Assembly: GCF_029892045.1 (NCBI RefSeq)
Contig: NZ_CP120367.1
Span: 434,001-498,000 of the forward strand
Direction of reading: 5' to 3'
Source: Sinorhizobium numidicum
GTDB taxonomy: Bacteria; Pseudomonadota; Alphaproteobacteria; Rhizobiales; Rhizobiaceae
Length of the DNA: 64,000 bases
In this document: in pieces, positions 23,875 to 61,415 of the stretch
How positions within the stretch are numbered: the stretch's first letter is position 1
Layout of the letters: each line of letters starts with the position of its first letter
Made by a program: the position numbers and the translations under genes
The notes under the pieces: generated by a model
Told to the model about the DNA's origin: nothing
Databases searched by the model: none
The model's input: the letters and a program-made list of their open reading frames with translations, nothing else

Positions 23875-24354
23875 GTGTCAGTTATCCGAAAGGATCGAGA
23901 ATGCGCCAGCTTTCCGCAGCTCTGGTCGAAAATTTTGCGGAAGGATGCGGATATTTGAAATTCGATATCACAGGGGCGGTCGATCGGTGACCGCCCAATA
24001 ACGCCGTCCGGCCACGGTCCACTATGCCTGCGGACGTGCCTTCGGCGTCTACGTTGCCAAGTTTCTATCGCGATAGTTGTTACTCGATTTCGTTCCTTTC
24101 AATACCAAGGTCGTGAAGATAGAGAAGATAACCACCGCATACAAGCTAATTGGCGCTGATTGCTGGTGACACGTTTGGCTCGGGACTAACAGACCCCTGC
24201 CAATGTCATGATGTGGTGCTTGTTTATGCTATCGGCTTTGCCAAGAGCGATTAGCAGATCGTTTCCGTCGGTAGCAGTGCCGGCGTTCGAGGGATAGCGA
24301 TTGCCTGCAACCTTAGAATGAGTTATCGGTGGAGTGTCCACAAGAGAGGGTATT
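23875..24354. other. 480-bp intergenic region with a hairpin and an antisense RTX-like fragment
   Basis: This stretch separates the leftward capsule export genes from the rightward RTX gene and should hold both promoters. GGGCGGTC/GACCGCCC (23974-23996) forms a perfect 8-bp stem with a 7-base loop but has no T-tract. On the minus strand, about 24186-24310 reads AGTATDGNDLLIALGKAD, which resembles an RTX-type calcium-binding segment and may be the end of a lost RTX gene. Confidence 0.35.
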
Positions 24355-25167
24355 ATGGGCGCGACAATCACAATCAACTCGATCTATAACTTCAACTCCA
24401 ATCTTCCTGATTTTAGCTCCATCTACTATGCAGAGTCGTATTACCGGAATTCGACGGTTTTTCGCGCGACCTACGACACGGGGGAGGCCGAGGAATTCCG
24501 GGGCAGCGGCTTTCGCTACAACAGCGATGGAGTTCCGATTGCCGGCACGGTGACAAGCTATTCGCTCATATACAATGGAAATGTCGAGATCAGCATCAAG
24601 GGAATATCGATTGCCGCAGCCTCGTTCGTTGCGGTGGCCGACACGGGTGGCATAGACGATGATGCGGCACTGATCGCAAGGGCTCTTACCGGCCATGATA
24701 CTTTCAGCGGCGGCTCTGGCTCCGATACATTTAACGGCCAGGCCGGCAACGATAAGCTGAGTGGGAACTACGGCAGGGACACGCTTATTGGCGGACGCGG
24801 CAACGACGTCCTGCACGGCGGGCGCGACCAGGACTTCCTGACAGGTGGATCTGGAGCCGATACCTTCATGTTCTACTCGGTCAAGGAATCTCGTGCCAAT
24901 AGCTCGGAACGTGACAACATCTATGGGTTTACGAGCGAGGACAGGATCGATCTGTCCGCCATGGATGCGAACGCTCTCACGAGAACCAACAACACCTTCA
25001 CCTTCCTCGGTGAGTCCGAATTTACCGGCCGACCAGGTCAGCTTCGTTACGAGAAAACGGCGTCCGGCACCGAGATCTATGCCGACATCAATGGCGACGC
25101 GGTGGCCGACATGTCGATCTTTCTCGACACAATGATGACGCTCGACAAGGGCTACTTCGTACTCTGA
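24355..25167 (+). CDS. RTX-type calcium-binding secreted protein
   Basis: A 270-residue protein with no Sec signal peptide. It has a unique N-domain (1-110), four to five glycine/aspartate-rich RTX nonapeptides around residues 115-160 (e.g. GGSGSDTF, GQAGNDKLSG, GGRGNDVLHG) and a C-terminal module ending in FVL. The last 100 residues parallel those of the serralysin-like protease at 28448-29953 (ADTFMF..., IYGF, DLSAMDA, LRYEK, Y(A/G)D(I/V)NGD). That module is the usual type I secretion signal region, so the protein is probably exported by an ABC/MFP/TolC system encoded elsewhere. ATG 24355 has GAGAGGG upstream. A strong terminator follows. Function of the N-domain unknown. Confidence 0.85.
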   Translation: MGATITINSIYNFNSNLPDFSSIYYAESYYRNSTVFRATYDTGEAEEFRGSGFRYNSDGVPIAGTVTSYSLIYNGNVEISIKGISIAAASFVAVADTGGIDDDAALIARALTGHDTFSGGSGSDTFNGQAGNDKLSGNYGRDTLIGGRGNDVLHGGRDQDFLTGGSGADTFMFYSVKESRANSSERDNIYGFTSEDRIDLSAMDANALTRTNNTFTFLGESEFTGRPGQLRYEKTASGTEIYADINGDAVADMSIFLDTMMTLDKGYFVL

Positions 25168-25217: not shown

Positions 25218-25462
25218 GCCCAGGACAGAGACTTCCGCCTCCGTCGCGCGTTGCAGGTGAGGTCCGCCGCCCACTGCGGAAACGGCAGTTTCTGACCGCC
25301 TGAAAATGAGGGGATGGGCGGTGCCCTGCCACCGAAATTACCAGTCTACGCTCGATCGACAAAGTGAGGCCACGAGCAGCCGATCTCAATAACTCAATGA
25401 CAGGTGTTGCGTTAGCAGCCGCACCAGGGCCCCCTTCTTAAATCACTGCCACAGCCGATAAT

Positions 25463-26754
25463 CAGCGGCTCAGGCTTGTTGCGGCTGCCAAAGCGGCGGT
25501 TGCTGATCTCTAGCATTTGTTGCTGAAGTGAGCGTTGCCGAGCCCCGTGCCGATCGTCAGGACTCCCCAGCCTGATACGTCCTGCATGAAGGGGATTTGC
25601 GACAGTCCTTGAACGACGGCGTCGTTGTGCATGATCACCAAGGTTTCGTCTTCACCGATTTGTGGAATGGCGCTCGTGAGGGCGACGGGCAGATTGAAGT
25701 GTTCGCTCTCCCAATTGCTGCCCGGCAGGTTTTGCCCGCCACGCGCAATCGACCCATCCGCGTTGATGATACCGGGACAGGCCACGCCGATGACGGGTGC
25801 CGGCGTGAGATCTGCCTTGTCCGCTTTGGCAATAAGCTTTTCGATCATCGCGACGAGACGTTCGATCGTGGCTGCGATTAGGTTCGTCGTCCGCATGTCG
25901 CCAGATATCCGACTTCCAGACCTTGGCCTTTGAGAGGTCCGGGTCCTCCTTCAAATGCAGCTCGACTATTCCGACGCGAACATTCGTGCCGCCGATATCA
26001 ACGGCGAGAATCGCCTTGTGACCCTTCAGCATCCAAGATGGCACAAGATGGACGGCTCCGATAAGTCCGGCATCATGTGGATGGTGGACGATAGGGTTGA
26101 GTTCTATCTTGAAACCCTCGGCTTTTAGCAGCACCATCGCACGGGCAATTGCGAGTTCGCCGATAGCGCTCGCTCTAAAGCCGCCGCCAACCACGACACG
26201 TTCAGTATTCTTCCAGCTTTTCTGGCGCAAAAAACGGCCGAGAACATTGGCTAGTTCGCCCGCGAAATCGTCAACCGCCCCTATAATCAGGGCGGCTGCC
26301 TCCTTGTCCTCACTGCGTAGAAGGGCATCGATCTGCTTTTTCGACAAATTATTGGTTGGTGTCTTCCCGAGCGGATCGCTGCCGCCCTTGCGTACGCGCT
26401 TGCGCCAGGCATCGAGCTTTTCTTGAAAGGCGAACTTGTTTGCCTTGTCGCCTAAGAAACTGTCGCCGTCGCGCAGTTCCGTATTGTAGTCGTCGACTGT
26501 GACTGACCGCAGATCACCGGCACCATGGGTGAGAGGAGCGCCGTTTTGCTTCTCTTTCTCCGATTTGCCCACGCTGCCTCCCTTATGATGCCTCGCCCGG
26601 ACTTCCTCCGTCCTGACGTAAATCGACGACGTTCCCGCGCTACGCCGGTCCTTTGCGATCAAGCAAAGCCCGACCATCTTGTCTAACGTTATCCTCGCTA
26701 TCCAGCTTAGGCCATGAACGACCAAAGACGGAACCATTCCGCAAGACGATGCTC
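25463..26754. repeat. Copy 1 of a 1.3-kb duplicated segment (ROK-family gene)
   Basis: This segment is nearly identical to 42298-43605, in the same orientation. The match starts at CAGCGGCTCAGGCTTG and ends at GACGATGCTC. Copy 1 differs by a few substitutions, by a 2-bp deletion inside the gene (near 25875) and by a 14-bp deletion in the leader (near 26627) between two TAAATC direct repeats. The flanks are unrelated beyond these ends. Confidence 0.95.
25510..26572 (-). pseudogene. ROK-family protein, frameshifted copy
   Basis: This is the disrupted twin of the intact gene at 42345-43409. The start is a GTG (26572) behind AAGGGAGG. The frame is normal through LAVDIGGTNVRVGIVEL and breaks where copy 2 reads GTGGCGCTGCG and copy 1 reads GTGGCTGCG: two bases are missing. 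The downstream third (25510-25870) is preserved in another frame. The breakage removes the ADP/phosphate loop region at the C-terminus, so the protein should be inactive. See the intact copy for the domain analysis. Confidence 0.9.
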
Positions 26755-28447: not shown

Positions 28448-29953
28448 CTACAGCACGAAGTGGTCCTTTTCCAGCGTGATCGCGTCGTCAAGATAAATGG
28501 CGAAATCCGCGTTCTTGTCGCCGTTCACATCGCCGTAGATGTAAGTTCCGGAAGTGTCTTGGTCATAGCGCAATTCTCCCTTGCTGCCGCTAAAGGCGGC
28601 TGTTTCGACGAAGAGAAAGGCCTGATTGCTCCGACCTAGCTGGGCGTCGATCGCGGAGAGACTGATCTTGTCGGACTGCGAGGGCAGGAAGTCGTAGATC
28701 GTGTCACGGCCGGTCGAGGCGACGGTGCTCTCGGACAGCCTCTTGAACACAAACGTGTCGGCCCCCGTTCCGCCGCTCAAGTGGTCTGCTCCGCCACCTC
28801 CCAGTATCCGATCATTTCCGTCGCCGCCGCGGACCTTGTCCCTGCCGAGCCCGCCGTACAGTGCATCATTGCCGGAATCGCCGTTCAGCACGTCGCTGCC
28901 GTCGTTGCCCCAAAGCGTGTTGGCCGCCTGGTTGCCGGTGATCGTGTCTGCGGCCGAGCCTCCATTGACGTTCTCGATCAGCGAGCGCGTGTCGCCGTGA
29001 TAGAGCAGCGCGTTGAAGATGTTGCCGGCGGCAAAGCCGTTGTTGGCGCCGCCGCCGAGCCAGGCGAGCTGGTCGACGCTCAAGGTCGAGGCCATACCCG
29101 GCCTGAGATCGATCTTGAGTCCGGTCGTGTAAGCCGTCAGATCGAAGGTATCGTTGCCGCCGCCGTCCCATATCGTGGCGAAGATCCGGTTGCCGCCCGG
29201 AGAGATGGCGGCCGCGCCATTGACGAGCGTGGCGCCGCTGCTGGGCGTCCATTTGTAGACCGAGTTGCCGCTGTTGGTCGTGAAGTCGGCGCCGTACATT
29301 TCCTGGAGCGCGGCGATGTCGGCCATCATGAAGGACTGCGGCGCGCCGTATTGTTCGTAGTAATAGCCGTTGGCGCCGACATAGCCCCTATAGGTCATGA
29401 TCGAATATTCGATCGAGTCGTATTGGGCTGGCAGTGCGTTGAAGGCGCCCTCTACCTCATGGCCGTGCTTCAGCCCGAGCGCATGGCCGAGCTCGTGCAG
29501 CAGCGCATGCCAGGCGTAGTTGCCCGCGGCCGGCTTGCGGTAGTCTGCGACGGTGCCGGCATAGGCGGTGCCGAACCAGATATCGCCGGCCTGGTCATAG
29601 GCGCCGGGCATATAGGCGTAGGCTGTCTTCGGAACAGTCGATTGCGCAAAGCGGATGGTCGCGGTGGCAGCGCTTCCTGAAGTGAAGTTGGCATTGGTGA
29701 AGCCCTCGACGGAAAAACCGTCATTGGCGGCGGAACCGTAGGACTGCTCCACGCCGAAAAGCGCGGCGTTTGTCTGCGCTTGCGATATCGCGGCGAAACC
29801 GCTGTCTTTCTCGCCGCCGTAGCTGTAGCTGCTGCCCGATGTCGGAAAAGCATAGGTGACGGTGCTGTTCCAGGTCAAACCCGACAGCACGCCGTCGATC
29901 AGGTCGTTGCCGGTCGGGTTTACAGTTTTGAGGGTCTTACCGGTGCCGCTCAT
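28448..29953 (-). CDS. Serralysin-like (M10B) secreted metalloprotease with RTX repeats
   Basis: A 501-residue protease secreted by a type I system. The zinc site HELGHALGLKH starts at H153, and the Met-turn SIMTYRGY follows about 35 residues later. The middle part (about 200-340) matches the serralysin C-terminal beta-roll entry. RTX nonapeptides run from about residue 345 to 395 (e.g. GNDGSDVLNG, GGLGRDKVRG, GGDGNDRILG). The last 100 residues parallel the RTX protein at 24355-25167 and end in FVL, the usual type I signal. No Sec signal peptide is present. The promoter region and N-terminal code are repeated at 37028-37664 and 48994-49573. No dedicated secretion genes are nearby. Confidence 0.93.
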   Translation of the reverse strand: MSGTGKTLKTVNPTGNDLIDGVLSGLTWNSTVTYAFPTSGSSYSYGGEKDSGFAAISQAQTNAALFGVEQSYGSAANDGFSVEGFTNANFTSGSAATATIRFAQSTVPKTAYAYMPGAYDQAGDIWFGTAYAGTVADYRKPAAGNYAWHALLHELGHALGLKHGHEVEGAFNALPAQYDSIEYSIMTYRGYVGANGYYYEQYGAPQSFMMADIAALQEMYGADFTTNSGNSVYKWTPSSGATLVNGAAAISPGGNRIFATIWDGGGNDTFDLTAYTTGLKIDLRPGMASTLSVDQLAWLGGGANNGFAAGNIFNALLYHGDTRSLIENVNGGSAADTITGNQAANTLWGNDGSDVLNGDSGNDALYGGLGRDKVRGGDGNDRILGGGGADHLSGGTGADTFVFKRLSESTVASTGRDTIYDFLPSQSDKISLSAIDAQLGRSNQAFLFVETAAFSGSKGELRYDQDTSGTYIYGDVNGDKNADFAIYLDDAITLEKDHFVL

Positions 29954-30232
29954 GCGAAATTCCCAATTGCGAAGCTCAAGGCCATTGCTTCGGTTCCAAA
30001 AACGCGAATCGTGCTAGCGACGATAGGGCCCAGTACCTACTATTGCCGTAACGGTTCAGTAAGATTGGAGGGAATTGTGCCGTTTCAGTGATCTCAGCAG
30101 CGCGCGATTCACGTTGTCCAATCTGCTGTCTATCTGCAGCGGAAGGCTTTTCTGGCTGCACTACACGTCGCCATCGAACGCGGGTCTTAACGCCAGACAT
30201 GCGGACAGTCCATTAGACCCAGTGGACTAGAC
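29605..30232. repeat. Protease-promoter module, copy A
   Basis: About 630 bp holding the first 115 codons of the intact protease gene and about 280 bp upstream. It recurs at 37028-37664 (B) and 48994-49573 (C) in the same orientation. All three end at the same sequence, AGTCCATTAG followed by CAGTGGACTAGAC, which is itself an imperfect inverted repeat (AGTCCA/TGGACT). The shared upstream part should contain the protease promoter. Confidence 0.9.
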
Positions 30233-36928: not shown

Positions 36929-37378
36929 TCAAACGGCGCTGTGCCGTTCCGACGGCCCATCAGGGTCTGTCGACCGACCACTTCTCGGTCGACGGCACAC
37001 TGATCGAGGCGTGGCCCGGCCGTAGGTACCCGGCATATAGGTATAGGCGGTCTCCGGGACATTCGATTGCGCGAAACGGACCGTCGCACTGGCGACGTTG
37101 CCGGCAGCGAAGTTGGCATTGGTGAAGCCCTCGATGGAAAAACCGTCATTGGCGACGGAACCGTAGGACTGCTCCATGCCGAAAAGCGCTGCGTATTGCT
37201 GCGCCGCCGATATGGGGTTGAAGCCGCTGCCTTGCTCGCCGCCGTAGCTGTAGCTGCTGCCTGACGTCGGAAAGGCATGGGTGATGGTGCTGTTCCACGC
37301 CGAACCCGACAGCGCGCCGTCGATCAGGTCGTTGCCGGTCGGGTTTACAGTTTTGAGGGTCTTACCGGTGCCGCTCAT
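36929..37378 (-). pseudogene. Serralysin-like protease, N-terminal fragment (copy B)
   Basis: The first 115 or so residues match the N-terminus of the intact protease at 28448-29953 (MSGTGKTLKTVNPTGNDLID, GTSGSSYSYGGE-type segment, SYGSVANDGFSIEGF). The homology stops at YMPGTYGRA (about 37017), before the zinc site, and the frame then runs through unrelated sequence to 36929. The start codon and upstream region are preserved. The product could not be a protease. Confidence 0.9.
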
Positions 37379-37664
37379 GCGAAATTCCCAATTGCGAAGC
37401 TCAAAGCCATTGCTTCGGTTCCAAAAACGCGAATCGTGCTAGCGACGATAGGCCCAGTACCTACTATTGCCGTAACGGGTTCAGTAAGATTGGAGGGAAT
37501 TGTGCCGTTTCAGTGATCTCAGTAGCACGCGATTCACGTTGTCCAATCTGCTGTCTATCTGCCACTGAGAGCGGAAGGCTTTTCTGGCTGCACTACACGT
37601 CGCCATCGAACGCGGGTCTTAACGCCAGACATGCGGGCAGTCCATTAGAGCCAGTGGACTAGAC
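37028..37664. repeat. Protease-promoter module, copy B
   Basis: Second copy of the protease N-terminus and promoter module (see 29605-30232). It continues without a break into the SRAP region, and the combined stretch 37104-37980 recurs at 49012-49890. Compared with A, B carries a 5-base insertion (CTATCTGCCACTGAGAGCGG against CTATCTGCAGCGG) and an extra G in a GGG run upstream of the gene. Confidence 0.9.
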
Positions 37665-40820: not shown

Positions 40821-40970
40821 TGCATCCTGTCAGTCACGGACGTAAGCAAAAGCGCATAGCCTCGCCTTGATCCATAAAACCCTCCGCTTTGACGTTCCTG
40901 CGGCCAAACCGATTAGCAGGATCGAATCAAAGGTTGGGGCATTTTCGCGGTTTTGCGCGTTAATAGCCGA

Positions 40971-41945
40971 ATGGCCAAAACATCGTCGAAAACACCGCGC
41001 GGCACCTCATCGCCGGACCCGATGCCGGATCGGGTTGATCCATGCTTGGCGATGATCGTCGACAAGCCGCCAAAAGGGCCGGACTGGGCCTTCGAGGTGA
41101 AATTGGACGGCTACCGGCTGGCCGTTCACGTCGAGTCGGACCGGGTACGGATAATCACACGCGGCGGCTACGACTGGACGGCCCGCTTTGCCTCGATCGC
41201 CGCCGAGGCGCGCGAGCTCGGACACAAGAGCTTGATCCTCGACGGTGAGGCAGTGGTGCTTGACGATCAGGGCCGGTCGGATTTCGGCATGCTTCAGCGC
41301 GCCCTCGGCAAGCGACCTAGTCTGCATGATCCCCGCGAAATTATCTTCTTTGCCTTCGACCTTCTCTATCTCGACGGTTGGGACCTGCGGCGACTGCCGC
41401 TGCGCGAACGCAGGTGGCTGCTCGATCCGATCGTCGCCGGTCGTGACGGTGCCATCCGGCTGTCGGAAGAGGTGGAAGCGGACGGAGAGGAGTTCTATCG
41501 CGTTGCCTGCGAACATGGCCTTGAAGGCATCGTCGGCAAGCGGCAAGACAAGCCCTATCGATCCGGCCGCTATGGCGACTGGCAGAAGATCAAATGCGTG
41601 CGCACCGATAGCTTCGTGATTGTCGGCTTCGAGCCGTCGACTGTGCCAGGCGCAATTGGGCGCCTGCTGCTGGCGGCAAAGAAAGGTGAGGGGCTTGCCT
41701 ACGTCGGCGGCTGCGGTACCGGCTGGACCAGTGAGATGTCGAAGGAGCTCCGCAAGCTGCTCGAAGGCATCGTCACGAAATCTCCGGCCGTAAACCTCAA
41801 GCGGAAGAATGCCGTCTTCACCGAACCGCTGCTCGTCGCCGAGGTCGAATATCGCGCCTGGACGGAAGATGGAAAGCTGCGGCATCCGTCGTTCAAGGGG
41901 ATTAGGGAGCGGGCGGATGGCGCGACGATATATGAGCTGAAATAG
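40971..41945 (+). CDS. ATP-dependent DNA ligase (LigD ligase-domain type)
   Basis: A 324-residue ligase consisting of a nucleotidyltransferase domain and an OB-fold domain, without LigD polymerase or nuclease domains. The adenylated lysine is K44 in FEVKLDGYR. Other motifs are LILDGEAVV (III/IIIa region), EGIVGKR (IV) and DWQKIKC (V). The C-terminal OB-fold contains VGGCGTGWT and the typical ending LRHPSFKGIRERADG. Rhizobia carry several such ligases linked to Ku-dependent end joining; no ku gene is in the window. I chose ATG 40971; the leader TGCGCGTTAATAGCC is repeated at two pseudogene copies. Confidence 0.93.
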   Translation: MAKTSSKTPRGTSSPDPMPDRVDPCLAMIVDKPPKGPDWAFEVKLDGYRLAVHVESDRVRIITRGGYDWTARFASIAAEARELGHKSLILDGEAVVLDDQGRSDFGMLQRALGKRPSLHDPREIIFFAFDLLYLDGWDLRRLPLRERRWLLDPIVAGRDGAIRLSEEVEADGEEFYRVACEHGLEGIVGKRQDKPYRSGRYGDWQKIKCVRTDSFVIVGFEPSTVPGAIGRLLLAAKKGEGLAYVGGCGTGWTSEMSKELRKLLEGIVTKSPAVNLKRKNAVFTEPLLVAEVEYRAWTEDGKLRHPSFKGIRERADGATIYELK

Positions 41946-42243: not shown

Positions 42244-42297
42244 AGCGGCCGGGGCTGACGCTGAACTGACTGTGGTGCAGGAAGCCAATGTGCAATC

Positions 42298-43605
42298 CAG
42301 CGGCTCAGGCTTGTTGCGGCTGCCAAAGCGGCGGTTGCTGATCTCTAGCATTTGTTGCTGAAGTGAGCGTTGCCGAGCCCCGTGCCGATCGTCAGGACTC
42401 CCCAGCCTGATACGTCCTGCATGAAGGGGATTTGCGACAGTCCTTGAACGACGGCGTCGTTGTGCATGATCACCAAGGTTTCGTCTTCACCGATTTGTGG
42501 AATGGCGCTCGTGAGGGCGACGGGCAGATTGAAGTGTTCGCTCTCCCAATTGCTGCCCGGCAGGTTTTGCCCGCCACGCGCAATCGACCCATCCGCGTTG
42601 ATGATACCGGGACAGGCCACGCCGATGACGGGTGCCGGCGTGAGATCTGCCTTGTCCGCTTTGGCAATAAGCTTTTCGATCATCGCGACGAGACGTTCGA
42701 TCGTGGCGCTGCGATTAGGTTCGTCGTCCGCATGTCGCCAGATATCCGACTTCCAGACCTTGGCCTTTGAGAGGTCCGGGTCCTCCTTCAAATGCAGCTC
42801 GACTATTCCGACGCGAACATTCGTGCCGCCGATATCAACGGCGAGAATCGCCTTGTGACCCTTCAGCATCCAAGATGGCACAAGATGGACGGCTCCGATA
42901 AGTCCGGCATCATGTGGATGGTGGACGATAGGGTTGAGTTCTATCTTGAAACCCTCGGCTTTTAGCAGCACCATCGCACGGGCAATTGCGAGTTCGCCGA
43001 TAGCGCTCGCTCTAAAGCCGCCGCCAACCACGACACGTTCAGTATTCTTCCAGCTTTTCTGGCGCAAGAACCGGCCGAGAACATTGGCTAGTTCGCCCGC
43101 AAAATCGTCAACCGCCCCTATAATCAGGGCGGCTGCCTCCTTGTCCTCACTGCGCAGAAGGGCATCGATCTGCTTTTTAGACAATTTATTGGTTGGTGTC
43201 TTCCCGAGCGGATCGCTGCCACCCTTTCGTACGCGCTTGCGCCAGGCATCGAGCTTTTCTTGAAAGGCGAACTTGTTTGCCTTGTCACCTAAGAAACCGT
43301 CGCCGTCGCGCAGTTCCATATTGTAGTCGTCGACTGTGACTGACGGCAGATCATCGGCACCATGGGTGAGAGGAGCGCCGTTTTGCTTCTCTTTCTCCGA
43401 TTTGACCACGCTGCCTCCCTTATGATGCCTCGCCCGAACTTCCTCCGTCCTGGCGTAAATCTAACAACATAAATCGACGACGTTCCCGCGCAACGCCGGT
43501 CCTTTGCGATCAAGCAAAGCCCGACCATCTTGTCTAACGTTATCCTCGCTATCCAGCTTAGGCCATGAACGACCAAAGACAGAACCATTCCGCGAGACGA
43601 TGCTC
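42298..43605. repeat. Copy 2 of the 1.3-kb duplicated segment (ROK-family gene)
   Basis: Near-identical to 25463-26754, same orientation. This copy is longer by 16 bp (2 bp in the gene and 14 bp in the leader) and keeps the gene intact, so it is the likely parental form. Its left end adjoins the traA remnant. Confidence 0.95.
42345..43409 (-). CDS. ROK-family protein with apparently circularly permuted domain order
   Basis: A 354-residue protein from GTG 43409, behind AAGGGAGG. ROK sugar kinases normally begin with the phosphate-1 loop, then the substrate/connect region and GTGxG, and end with a GGG...DAGLIGA helix region. Here the normal C-terminal half comes first: AALIIGAVDDFAGELANVLG, VVVGGGF and HDAGLIGAVHL (about residues 93-175). 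A typical ROK N-terminus follows: AILAVDIGGTNVRVGIVEL (about 183-201), VACPGIINADGSIARGG, NLPGSNW, then NDAVVQG and TIGTGLGN at the very end. The zinc-binding motif and the GE-GH substrate motif that usually follow GTGxG are not visible. The first 90 residues are charged. Catalytic activity is uncertain. A frameshifted duplicate is at 25510-26572. Confidence 0.75.
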   Translation of the reverse strand: MVKSEKEKQNGAPLTHGADDLPSVTVDDYNMELRDGDGFLGDKANKFAFQEKLDAWRKRVRKGGSDPLGKTPTNKLSKKQIDALLRSEDKEAAALIIGAVDDFAGELANVLGRFLRQKSWKNTERVVVGGGFRASAIGELAIARAMVLLKAEGFKIELNPIVHHPHDAGLIGAVHLVPSWMLKGHKAILAVDIGGTNVRVGIVELHLKEDPDLSKAKVWKSDIWRHADDEPNRSATIERLVAMIEKLIAKADKADLTPAPVIGVACPGIINADGSIARGGQNLPGSNWESEHFNLPVALTSAIPQIGEDETLVIMHNDAVVQGLSQIPFMQDVSGWGVLTIGTGLGNAHFSNKC

Positions 43606-48948: not shown

Positions 48949-49287
48949 CTAAATGGCTCGGGAAACTCTTCCGTCGCCCTCGAACTCATGTTCGGGAGTG
49001 GCAGCACTTCCTGAAGTGAAGTTGGCATTGGTGAAGCCCTCGACGGAAAAACCGTCATTGGCGGCGGAACCGTAGGACTGCTCCACGCCGAAAAGCGCTG
49101 CGTATTGCTGCGCCGCCGATATGGGGTTGAAGCCGCTGCCTTGCTCGCCGCCGTAGCTGTAGCTGCTGCCTGACGTCGGAAAGGCATGGGTGATGGTGCT
49201 GTTCCACGCCGAACCCGACAGCGCGCCGTCGATCAGGTCGTTGCCGGTCGGGTTTACAGTTTTGAGGGTCTTACCGGTGCCGCTCAT
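48949..49287 (-). pseudogene. Serralysin-like protease, N-terminal fragment (copy C)
   Basis: The first 97 residues match the intact protease N-terminus and then stop at FTSGSAAT (about 48995); the remaining 15 residues are unrelated. The last part (FSVEGFTNANFTSGSAA) matches copy A, while the earlier part (HAFPTSG, GSGFNPISAAQQYAALF) matches copy B. It is therefore a mosaic. Start codon and promoter region are intact. Confidence 0.9.
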
Positions 49288-49573
49288 GCGAAATTCCCAA
49301 TTGCGAAGCTCAAAGCCATTGCTTCGGTTCCAAAAACGCGAATCGTGCTAGCGACGATAGGCCCAGTACCTACTATTGCCGTAACGGGTTCAGTAAGATT
49401 GGAGGGAATTGTGCCGTTTCAGTGATCTCAGTAGCACGCGATTCACGTTGTCCAATCTGCTGTCTATCTGCCACTGAGAGCGGAAGGCTTTTCTGGCTGC
49501 ACTACACGTCGCCATCGAACGCGGGTCTTAACGCCAGACATGCGGGCAGTCCATTAGAGCCAGTGGACTAGAC
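48994..49573. repeat. Protease-promoter module, copy C
   Basis: Third copy of the module at 29605-30232 and 37028-37664. With its right-hand extension to 49890 it repeats 37104-37980 (protease start, thermonuclease signal remnant, SRAP 3' end). Confidence 0.9.
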
Positions 49574-60102: not shown

Positions 60103-60579
60103 AACGAGCGCTACTTCCTGGCTGTGCCGCCGGGCAGCGCGCTGGCGGCAGCAGAAAGGGTTAGGATGATAGACCTGAAACAGGAACGGATCATCTCCTT
60201 CTCCCGCTCAAACCTGTCCTACACGGAAAAGTACTTCTTCGAGAAGTTCAGGGAGCATGGGCTGCTCGATAATGTCGCCTGCAGCTGCGACGACACTTTA
60301 TCGCTCGTTTCTCTGGTCTCTGCGGGAATTGGCGTGGGCTTCGTTCCGGAATGGACGAAAGATTTGCCCAATCGATCGTTTCTCCTTCGTGAGGTGGAGG
60401 GCATGGACTTCACGATCGGATTAGGGCTCGCTTGGAACAAGGAAGACCCTACGGCGAACCGCGACGAGATAGTTGAAATCGCTCGCTCGCTGGCGTCCGC
60501 ATCGCGACCACGTAAAGCTGCCGGGAAACATACAGACAAAAGTGGTCCCAAGCGCCATCAATCGCTGGATGGCGGGTGA
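60103..60579 (+). pseudogene. LysR-family regulator, C-terminal half
   Basis: The frame reads NERYFLAVPPGSALAAAERV, then RIISFSRSNLSYTEKYFFEK, DDTLSLVSLVSAGIGVGF and EWTKDLPNRS, collinear with residues about 150-296 of the intact LysR at 32598-33488. The DNA-binding half is missing. The frame could be translated from GTG 60124 or ATG 60166, but it has no helix-turn-helix. Confidence 0.85.
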
Positions 60580-60695
60580 CGAATCGAAAGTGCCGTGGAG
60601 GGGAACCAGCGCAACTATATCTTCGTGCGTTCGTCATCGGCTTCAAGGACGTTGATAGAGCGGGAAACGCGCTGACGGTATGCACGTGGTACAAA

Positions 60696-61415
60696 ATGGG
60701 ATTTCAGAAGGTGAATATCTGGTTTCAGAAGTTGACCAACATTTCGGCCTTGGCGCGCTCCAGGGAGATGTTCGAGGAAGCGCTCGCCGAGCTCACCGGA
60801 GAGCTCGGTTTCGATTGTTACGCCTACCTCAATCTTCAACCGATAGGAACATATGCCGTGTCGAACTATCCGGCTGAATGGCAGGATAGGTATTTTGCGA
60901 AGAAGTTTGATGAGCTCGATCCCATCGTCACGATTGCCAAATCGACGAAGAGGACCTTTACCTGGTCTTCCGACAACTCAAGAAGAAACACTTCGAAACG
61001 TATCCGACGGTTCTATCTGGATGCTGCCGAGTTCGGCATCCGATCGGGCATTACGATTCCGGTCGCAACGGCATTCGGGCGCATGTCCATGCTGACGATT
61101 GCCTCGCACAAGCCGAGCCTTTCGTTAGACAGAGACATTGATCCGATTATGGCGGCAACCGCCGTCGCCCAGCTCCACGCAGGAATTGAGCACGCGGAGA
61201 TCGACGCCACGGCGAAATCGAGCGTCAACTTGACGGCGAAACAGGCCTTGCTGCTCAAATGGTCGGCCGAGGGCAAAGCCATGCGAGCGATCGCCACTAT
61301 CGAGAACATGAGCTATTTCAACGTGAACTTTCATCTCAACAACGCTCGCAAAGCGCTCGATGCCGGCACTCTGCCGCAGGCGACGGCGACAGCGACAAAA
61401 CTCAAACTTATTTGA
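60696..61415 (+). CDS. TraR-like LuxR-family quorum-sensing regulator
   Basis: A protein of 239 residues from ATG 60696, or 234 from GTG 60711. The N-terminal autoinducer domain keeps the acyl-homoserine-lactone contacts in order: Trp and Tyr in AEWQDRYF, Asp in ELDPIV and Trp in FTWSS, followed by EFGIRSGITIPV. The C-terminal LuxR helix-turn-helix is LTAKQALLLKWSAEGKAMRA, ending TKLKLI. The whole layout parallels TraR of Ti/rhizobial plasmids. No luxI/traI gene is in the window. It would control conjugation genes, but only fragments of them remain here. Confidence 0.88.
   Translation: MGFQKVNIWFQKLTNISALARSREMFEEALAELTGELGFDCYAYLNLQPIGTYAVSNYPAEWQDRYFAKKFDELDPIVTIAKSTKRTFTWSSDNSRRNTSKRIRRFYLDAAEFGIRSGITIPVATAFGRMSMLTIASHKPSLSLDRDIDPIMAATAVAQLHAGIEHAEIDATAKSSVNLTAKQALLLKWSAEGKAMRAIATIENMSYFNVNFHLNNARKALDAGTLPQATATATKLKLI

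What the first reader, a model, noticed from the sequence alone, without database searches (positions are those of the whole stretch)
42345..43409. ROK-family protein with motifs in circularly permuted order
Seen: the helix-rich ROK C-terminal signature (GGGF..., HDAGLIGAVHL) precedes the N-terminal phosphate loop (LAVDIGGTNVRVG), and the protein ends just after GTGLG. Known: ROK kinases and repressors have the opposite order and continue after GTGxG with the GE-GH and zinc motifs. Inference: this is a natural circular permutation of the actin-like ATPase fold, with a new charged N-terminal segment. If true, the new termini fall between the GTGxG strand and the substrate/zinc lobe, which would test how the two-domain closure tolerates permutation.
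Basis: partly seen in the sequence, partly recalled or inferred. Interest (0 to 1): 0.78.

Follow-up and report, generated by a model that had tools for sequence, protein, structure and literature searches.

The report
Naturally rearranged ROK sugar-kinase family
A rhizobial gene encodes a sugar-kinase-like protein whose second half comes before its first, the same swapped order is conserved in relatives in other soil bacteria, and in many of them the gene sits behind a general-stress promoter motif.

Summary
Observation confirmed, main inference supported. The 354-aa product of 42345-43409(-) is a circularly permuted ROK-fold protein. Residues 19-180 match ROK profile positions 161-302, residues 188-346 match 5-139 (E 2.9e-8, 3.8e-6). 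Rotating the family profile to start at residue 184 raises the ROK score from 63.8 to 105.0 and covers 5-302 of 305. Models of the whole protein and of its N-half match adjoining parts of one ROK chain (3vgk 2-142, 141-295) in swapped order. The order is shared by the 47 aligned members and by 38 of 297 genomes of the order, own included. Catalytic residues are kept; GE-x-GH and the zinc knuckle are lost. The 'new charged segment' is mostly the old post-GTGxG part; only about 16 residues are extra. The general-stress motif GGAAC-N16/17-CGTT lies upstream in 37 of 92 loci (0.76 expected), not cleanly in this window. otsB adjoins in 28 of 80 named loci. Best reading: a zinc-free permuted sugar kinase of the alphaproteobacterial stress response; activity and substrate untested. 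A frameshifted second copy lies 16.8 kb away.

The parts
42345..43409 (-). Circularly permuted ROK-fold protein gene, 354 aa, GTG start
42870..43355 (-). Residues 19-180: counterpart of the ROK C-terminal part (ROK profile 161-302 of 305)
42354..42848 (-). Residues 188-352: counterpart of the ROK N-terminal part (ROK profile 5-139)
43284..43298 (-). Residues 38-42 GFLGD: F39, G41 and D42 invariant in 47 of 47; region that stands where ROK has GE-x-GH / zinc loop
42807..42845 (-). Residues 189-201 LAVDIGGTNVRVG: phosphate-1 loop, metal Asp D192
   Evidence: D192 in 47 of 47
42456..42461 (-). Residues N317-D318: D318 is the predicted catalytic base
   Evidence: N317 47 of 47, D318 46 of 47
42372..42386 (-). 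Residues 342-346 GTGLG: phosphate-2 loop, running into the last strand 345-352
   Evidence: each of 342-346 in 47 of 47; secondary structure
43463..43486 (-). Weakened EcfG-type promoter-like site, GGAAC-N16-GTT (TGTT instead of CGTT, spacer one short), ending 53 nt before the GTG
   Evidence: the strict motif is not met in the window but is in 37 of 92 loci
25510..26566 (-). Second copy of the gene, 97-99% identical in its two pieces, frameshifted near residue 235
42294..43605 (.). Copy 1 of a direct duplication of about 1.3 kb (97.3% identical); copy 2 at 25460-26754

Best explanation
[quoted passage not shown] The old C-terminus is joined to the old N-terminus by about 7 residues (181-187), and new ends were opened in the beta-hairpin after the phosphate-2 loop GTGxG. 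The chain should still close into the usual two-lobed kinase. By homology with NagK, D192 would hold the metal, T196 and T343 the phosphates and D318 act as the catalytic base; G129-131 is the glycine motif that ROKs use at the adenosine (recalled). The zinc knuckle and the GE-x-GH sugar ligands of ROK are gone and are replaced by an invariant zinc-free segment (H16, GFxGD 38-42), which is therefore the likely seat of sugar specificity. In Rhizobiaceae and Phyllobacteriaceae at least, the gene is most likely read by the general-stress sigma factor EcfG/RpoE2. With trehalose-phosphatase OtsB often beside it, it most likely phosphorylates a sugar in stress-related sugar metabolism; feeding glucose-6-phosphate to trehalose synthesis is the leading guess. 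Shown by computation: the permutation, its conservation, the conserved catalytic residues, the promoter motif, the otsB neighbourhood. Inferred: kinase activity, sugar substrate, stress induction, trehalose link (about 0.35). The window's own gene looks intact, but its promoter-like site is weakened and a nearly invariant D166 is H.
For: Rotation scan peaks at residue 184, 105.0 against 63.8 in native order, ROK 5-302 of 305 covered. Complementary halves. Rotated P0111 matches Pfam ROK 2-292 of 294 in one stretch; native it gives two stretches. Models: pLDDT 89.5, pTM 0.88; N-half alone pLDDT 78, pTM 0.72. The same PDB entries cover both halves in swapped order: 3vgk 2-142 and 141-295, 5nck 1-144 and 143-269, 2gup 1-135 and 134-269. 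Catalytic residues conserved, purifying selection. Strict promoter motif in 37 of 92 upstreams, 0.76 expected, 37 distinct sequences; seven scrambled -35 boxes gave 0-2 of 92 strict and 0-4 loose. R. etli EcfG1 motif in print is GGAAC-N16-CGTT (PMC3892343, passages). otsB divergently adjacent in 28 of 80 named loci.
Confidence: 0.72

Rival explanations
1. A fusion of two ROK fragments from different parents rather than a permuted single ROK; it would look the same today if the halves happened to be complementary.
For: Sequence order alone cannot tell a fusion of complementary halves from permutation by duplication and trimming. No tandem ROK-ROK intermediate was seen: the longest open frame around a listed match was 582 aa in a search of 297 genomes.
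Against: The halves cover ROK 5-139 and 161-302 with no overlap and little but the breakpoint missing, meet to within a residue or two on single templates, and the 47 aligned members share the breakpoints.
Confidence: 0.12
2. A catalytically dead ROK-fold protein that works as a stress sensor or regulator (like ROK repressors, but without a DNA-binding domain), binding sugar or nucleotide.
For: Loss of motifs: CxCG..GC in 0 of 47 against 25 of 35 ordinary ROKs; GE-x-GH in 1 of 47 (off-place) against 28 of 35. Stress promoter motif.
Against: Metal Asp, both phosphate loops and the catalytic Asp are near invariant, which a mere sensor need not keep. Pfam shows no helix-turn-helix; the only DNA-binding name is a chance-level UvrA_DNA-bind hit in 1 of 47 (E 0.097).
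Confidence: 0.2
3. A permuted hexokinase or group-A glucokinase rather than a ROK.
For: Pfam Hexokinase_1 matches 41 of 47 members weakly, best E 3.4e-4; GTGLGNA recalls the hexokinase GTGxNA motif (recalled, from no call).
Against: Profile score with group-A glucokinases 49.8 against 105.0 with ROK (glucokinase profile of 10 sequences); Pfam ROK matches 44 of 47, best 1.3e-12; the best structure matches are ROKs. A hexokinase profile was not tested by hhalign.
Confidence: 0.08

Closest known systems
ROK kinases: GNE N-acetylmannosamine kinase (2yhy), S. griseus glucokinase (3vgk), F. nucleatum ManNAc kinase (5nck)
   Same: Two-lobe fold, DxGGTN, ND catalytic pair, GTGxG, GGG, AGLxGA near the old C-terminus
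   Different: Order of halves swapped; no GE-x-GH, no zinc knuckle; extra tails at the new termini
Group-A glucokinases (PF02685) and hexokinases (PF00349/PF03727)
   Same: Same superfamily fold, phosphate loops
   Different: Canonical order; weaker profile match to group-A glucokinases
Circularly permuted GTPases (YlqF/YawG type and cpRAS; PMC2430557, start of abstract in the search listing)
   Same: A natural, conserved circular permutation of a widespread nucleotide-binding fold
   Different: P-loop GTPase fold, unrelated (recalled)
EcfG/RpoE2 general-stress regulon genes, e.g. otsBA (PMC8877191, passages)
   Same: EcfG-type promoter motif and often otsB as neighbour
   Different: No statement on expression of the permuted ROK itself was found in the passages read here

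Membership tests
ROK family (Pfam PF00480) | Pfam ROK gathering score | tested here: met
   27.3 bits against cut-off 22.9, but only profile 2-141 of 294
ROK family (Pfam PF00480) | Canonical order N-lobe then C-lobe | tested here: not met
   Swapped
ROK family (Pfam PF00480) | All fold elements present | tested here: met
   Doubled and rotated profiles align over ROK 5-302 of 305
ROK family (Pfam PF00480) | GE-x-GH sugar/zinc motif | tested here: not met
   1 of 47, off-place at residue 107 of P0064; 28 of 35 ordinary ROKs
ROK family (Pfam PF00480) | CxCGxxGC structural zinc knuckle | tested here: not met
   0 of 47 against 25 of 35
ROK family (Pfam PF00480) | Metal Asp, catalytic ND, two phosphate loops | tested here: met
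   D192 47, N317 47, D318 46, T343 47 of 47; T196 41 T and 6 S
ROK family (Pfam PF00480) | Sugar phosphorylation | not testable with these tools
   needs an assay
Natural circular permutant | Profile score peaks when the sequence is rotated | tested here: met
   Peak at residue 184 against the ROK profile; no clear peak against group-A glucokinases; an ordinary ROK profile against group-A glucokinases peaks unrotated
Natural circular permutant | Both halves match adjoining parts of one template | tested here: met
   3vgk, 5nck, 2gup, 6q26; the two halves were not superposed in one frame
Group-A glucokinase (PF02685) | Profile match over the gathering score | tested here: not met
   13.5 bits against 22.1, native order; 14.1 rotated
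EcfG/RpoE2 regulon | GGAAC-N16/17-CGTT upstream | tested here: met
   37 of 92 loci of the family; not met by the window's own, degraded site
EcfG/RpoE2 regulon | Expression depends on the sigma factor | not tested

The most novel reading that the evidence does not exclude
A whole family of circularly permuted, zinc-free ROK kinases with a rebuilt sugar pocket carries an undescribed activity in the alphaproteobacterial general stress response, for example phosphorylating trehalose or a related osmolyte, with the permutation tuning lobe closure or freeing the chain ends near the active site for regulation.
Probability: 0.25. Interest if true: 0.85.

Novelty: new variant of a known kind. Interest (0 to 1): 0.66.

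Why it matters
It gives a natural, evolutionarily kept experiment on how a two-domain actin-like kinase tolerates moving its chain ends from the small lobe into the hairpin beside the active site. It also shows that database entries annotated simply as ROK family protein or glucokinase include proteins in swapped order whose sugar site is not ROK-like, and it points to a sugar-kinase-like protein as a likely target of the alphaproteobacterial general stress response.

Tried and rejected
Single-sequence rotation against Pfam is insensitive: ROK bits, native to rotated, are 27.3 to 28.1 (window), 37.4 to 38.4 (P0111), 35.5 to 35.5 (L046), 30.9 to 31.0 (L097) and 24.1 to 24.8 (P0131); only P0111 is then matched end to end. 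Rotation against group-A glucokinases gives no clear peak (49.8-49.9 at many starts, native and 184 included). Sequential structure search of the whole model shows mainly the C-half, so the N-half was modelled alone.

Literature: 'ROK family' with 'circular permutation' gave one paper, on sequence clustering by title and abstract (not opened). Searches showed no report of a permuted ROK or sugar kinase in their listings (20 of 79, 25 of 552 and 3 of 3 papers listed). PMC12696579, PMC1079889 and PMC12667903 were searched for terms only. Most subscription papers are not in the library. 'EcfG' with 'glucokinase' and 'general stress response' gave none. Guessed S. meliloti locus tags gave nothing, so no tag is claimed for the 1021 gene.

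Gene neighbourhoods beyond otsB (rplU/rpmA beside many Bradyrhizobium copies, read by eye; DUF892; ATP-dependent DNA ligase; isochorismatase) differ between lineages and were not taken as functional evidence. Rows dropped: 4 of 96 loci without an anchor (L030, L038, L039, L050) before the promoter counts; 1 of 36 fetched ROK loci (L133) and 8 of 18 glucokinase loci were not in the profiles. The expected promoter rate was taken from the same loci, both strands, hits included. The notebook entry counted 15 full-length hits; the table gives 16, own genome included.

Full report
WHAT IS THERE. Window 42345-43409 on the minus strand is an open frame of 354 codons with a GTG start. It belongs to a large family: the homology search scored 8000 candidates (its cap), and the best 120 listed are colinear with the query over 96-100% of its length at 343-403 aa (the candidates further down, not listed, may include ordinary ROKs). 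Sources call them 'ROK family protein', 'glucokinase', 'predicted NBD/HSP70 family sugar kinase' or 'hypothetical protein'. dN/dS between the window gene and S. fredii, E. aridi and S. meliloti orthologues is 0.089, 0.115 and 0.081.

PERMUTATION, SEQUENCE. Pfam ROK matches only residues 189-352 with its positions 2-141, while the NCBIfam N-acetylmannosamine kinase profile matches residues 75-177 with its positions 193-286 of 291. A profile of 47 members (A2, 44-84% identical to the window protein) was compared by hhalign with a profile of 35 ordinary ROKs. The family's residues 19-180 align with ROK 161-302 (E 2.9e-8) and residues 188-346 with ROK 5-139 (E 3.8e-6): two complementary halves in swapped order. 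Doubling the family profile gives one alignment over ROK 5-302 of 305 (score 104.9). Rotating it in steps of nine gives the highest score, 105.0, at start residue 184, against 63.8 in native order. Group-A glucokinases score only 49.8 and show no clear peak on rotation; an ordinary ROK profile rotated against them peaks unrotated, as a control should. Rotating single sequences adds at most 1 bit to the Pfam ROK score.

WHAT WAS KEPT AND LOST. Against NagK (D6 metal, T10 and T132 phosphate, D105 base; PMC10031466, passages) the family keeps D192 (47 of 47), T196 (41 T, 6 S), T343 (47), N317 (47), D318 (46) and G129-131 (47). It has no CxCG..GC zinc knuckle (0 of 47; 25 of 35 ordinary ROKs) and no GE-x-GH in place (one off-place string in P0064; 28 of 35 ROKs have it). 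Invariant instead are H16, F39, G41, D42, F49 and R57. D42 is the best candidate for a replacement sugar ligand (inference).

DISTRIBUTION. In an even draw from the phylum 16 of 299 genomes, own included, have a full-length match; the 5 other matching genomes hold ordinary ROKs in canonical order. In the order, 39 of 297 genomes match at 1e-30, own included, 38 full length and one a fragment, in 16 of 123 genera. In the class of the Pseudoxanthomonas genome G031 it is 1 of 274, G031 itself, although the protein search from it lists named Pseudoxanthomonas, Luteimonas, Lysobacter, Stenotrophomonas and Vulcaniibacterium members. A tree of 107 members separates these gammaproteobacterial rows plus two genomes of another family (L097, L098) from the remaining rows (100/99; root at the midpoint only). 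No tandem ROK-ROK frame was seen in the listed matches. The permuted order thus appears older than the spread of the family (inference).

REGULATION AND NEIGHBOURS. In 330 nt upstream of the conserved HG codon, GGAAC-N16/17-CGTT occurs in 37 of 92 loci (0.0083 expected each, 0.76 in all), in 37 different sequences; seven scrambled -35 boxes gave 0-2. The looser GGAAC-N15..18-GTT occurs in 42 of 92, the window included (scrambled boxes 0-4). The loci are related, so these counts overstate independent evidence. The motif is that of R. etli EcfG1 in print (GGAAC-N16-CGTT; PMC3892343, passages). Shinella (7 of 7) has GGAAC..CATT and Bradyrhizobium (20 of 32) GCAAC..CGTT at a similar distance; these variants were chosen after inspection and weigh less. 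otsB (trehalose-6-phosphate phosphatase, Pfam checked on the Shinella gene) starts divergently next to the gene in 28 of 80 named loci; three more have it farther off. The 28 lie within one clade of the tree, which holds Rhizobium, Shinella, Metarhizobium and relatives. None of the 15 G-genome loci L112-L126 has it. OtsBA is described as RpoE2-mediated in E. aridi, and its pathway as using glucose-6-phosphate and UDP-glucose (PMC8877191, passages). Hence the working model: a stress-induced sugar kinase, perhaps feeding trehalose synthesis. No expression data for the gene itself were found; the supplementary tables of the S. meliloti RpoE2 study (PMC3616915, passages) could not be opened here.

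THE WINDOW'S OWN COPIES. The genome (6.72 Mb, 3 contigs; nearest rows in the tree Sinorhizobium) shows matches only here: the intact copy and a second, 97-99% identical copy at 25510-26566 with a frameshift near residue 235, inside a 1.3-kb direct duplication 16.8 kb away. The intact copy has a weakened promoter-like site (TGTT for CGTT, spacer one short; 43463-43486) and H166 where 46 of 47 have D, so it may be starting to decay even though its coding sequence shows purifying selection.

VERDICT. A real, conserved circular permutation of the ROK kinase fold, not found described in the open papers searched. My odds: fold and permuted order about 0.95, active kinase about 0.7, stress-sigma control about 0.85 for the Rhizobium/Sinorhizobium/Phyllobacterium lineage, trehalose link about 0.35.

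Noticed in passing
window 25460-26754 and 42294-43605: A 1.3-kb direct duplication (97.3% identical) carrying the gene; the copy at 25.5 kb is frameshifted.
   Followed up: partly
window 40953-41945 (+); L115 7432-8562 (-): ATP-dependent DNA ligase (Pfam DNA_ligase_A_M and A_C) convergent with the gene in the window; a distant homologue (L115) also has an ATP-dependent DNA ligase directly next to it.
   Followed up: partly
L113 10051-10767, L116 10259-10801: A DUF892 gene (ferritin-like by recall) close to the permuted ROK in two distant genomes.
   Followed up: no
L109 5585-6070 and L112 12207-12686: The same VOC-type gene (69% identical) lies a few kb from the permuted ROK in S. meliloti and in Pseudoxanthomonas.
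   Followed up: no
window 29665-29964, 37090-37389, 48999-49298: Three copies of a repeat of at least 300 nt (89-96% identical to the reference copy), not identified.
   Followed up: no
window 24334-25167 (+) and 28448-29953 (-): Two proteins with RTX calcium-binding repeats and a serralysin C-terminal domain by Pfam.
   Followed up: no
window 60576-61415 (+): Protein with an autoinducer-binding domain.
   Followed up: no
L124 13154-13444 (-): A short piece of the N-terminal part of the permuted ROK lies a few kb from the full gene in the genome G200 (also the 13-46 match), perhaps a remnant of a duplication.
   Followed up: no
L042 7011-7742 (-): The otsB neighbour in this Rhizobiales MAG is only 33-35% identical to the two otsB queries, yet sits in the same divergent place.
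   Followed up: no
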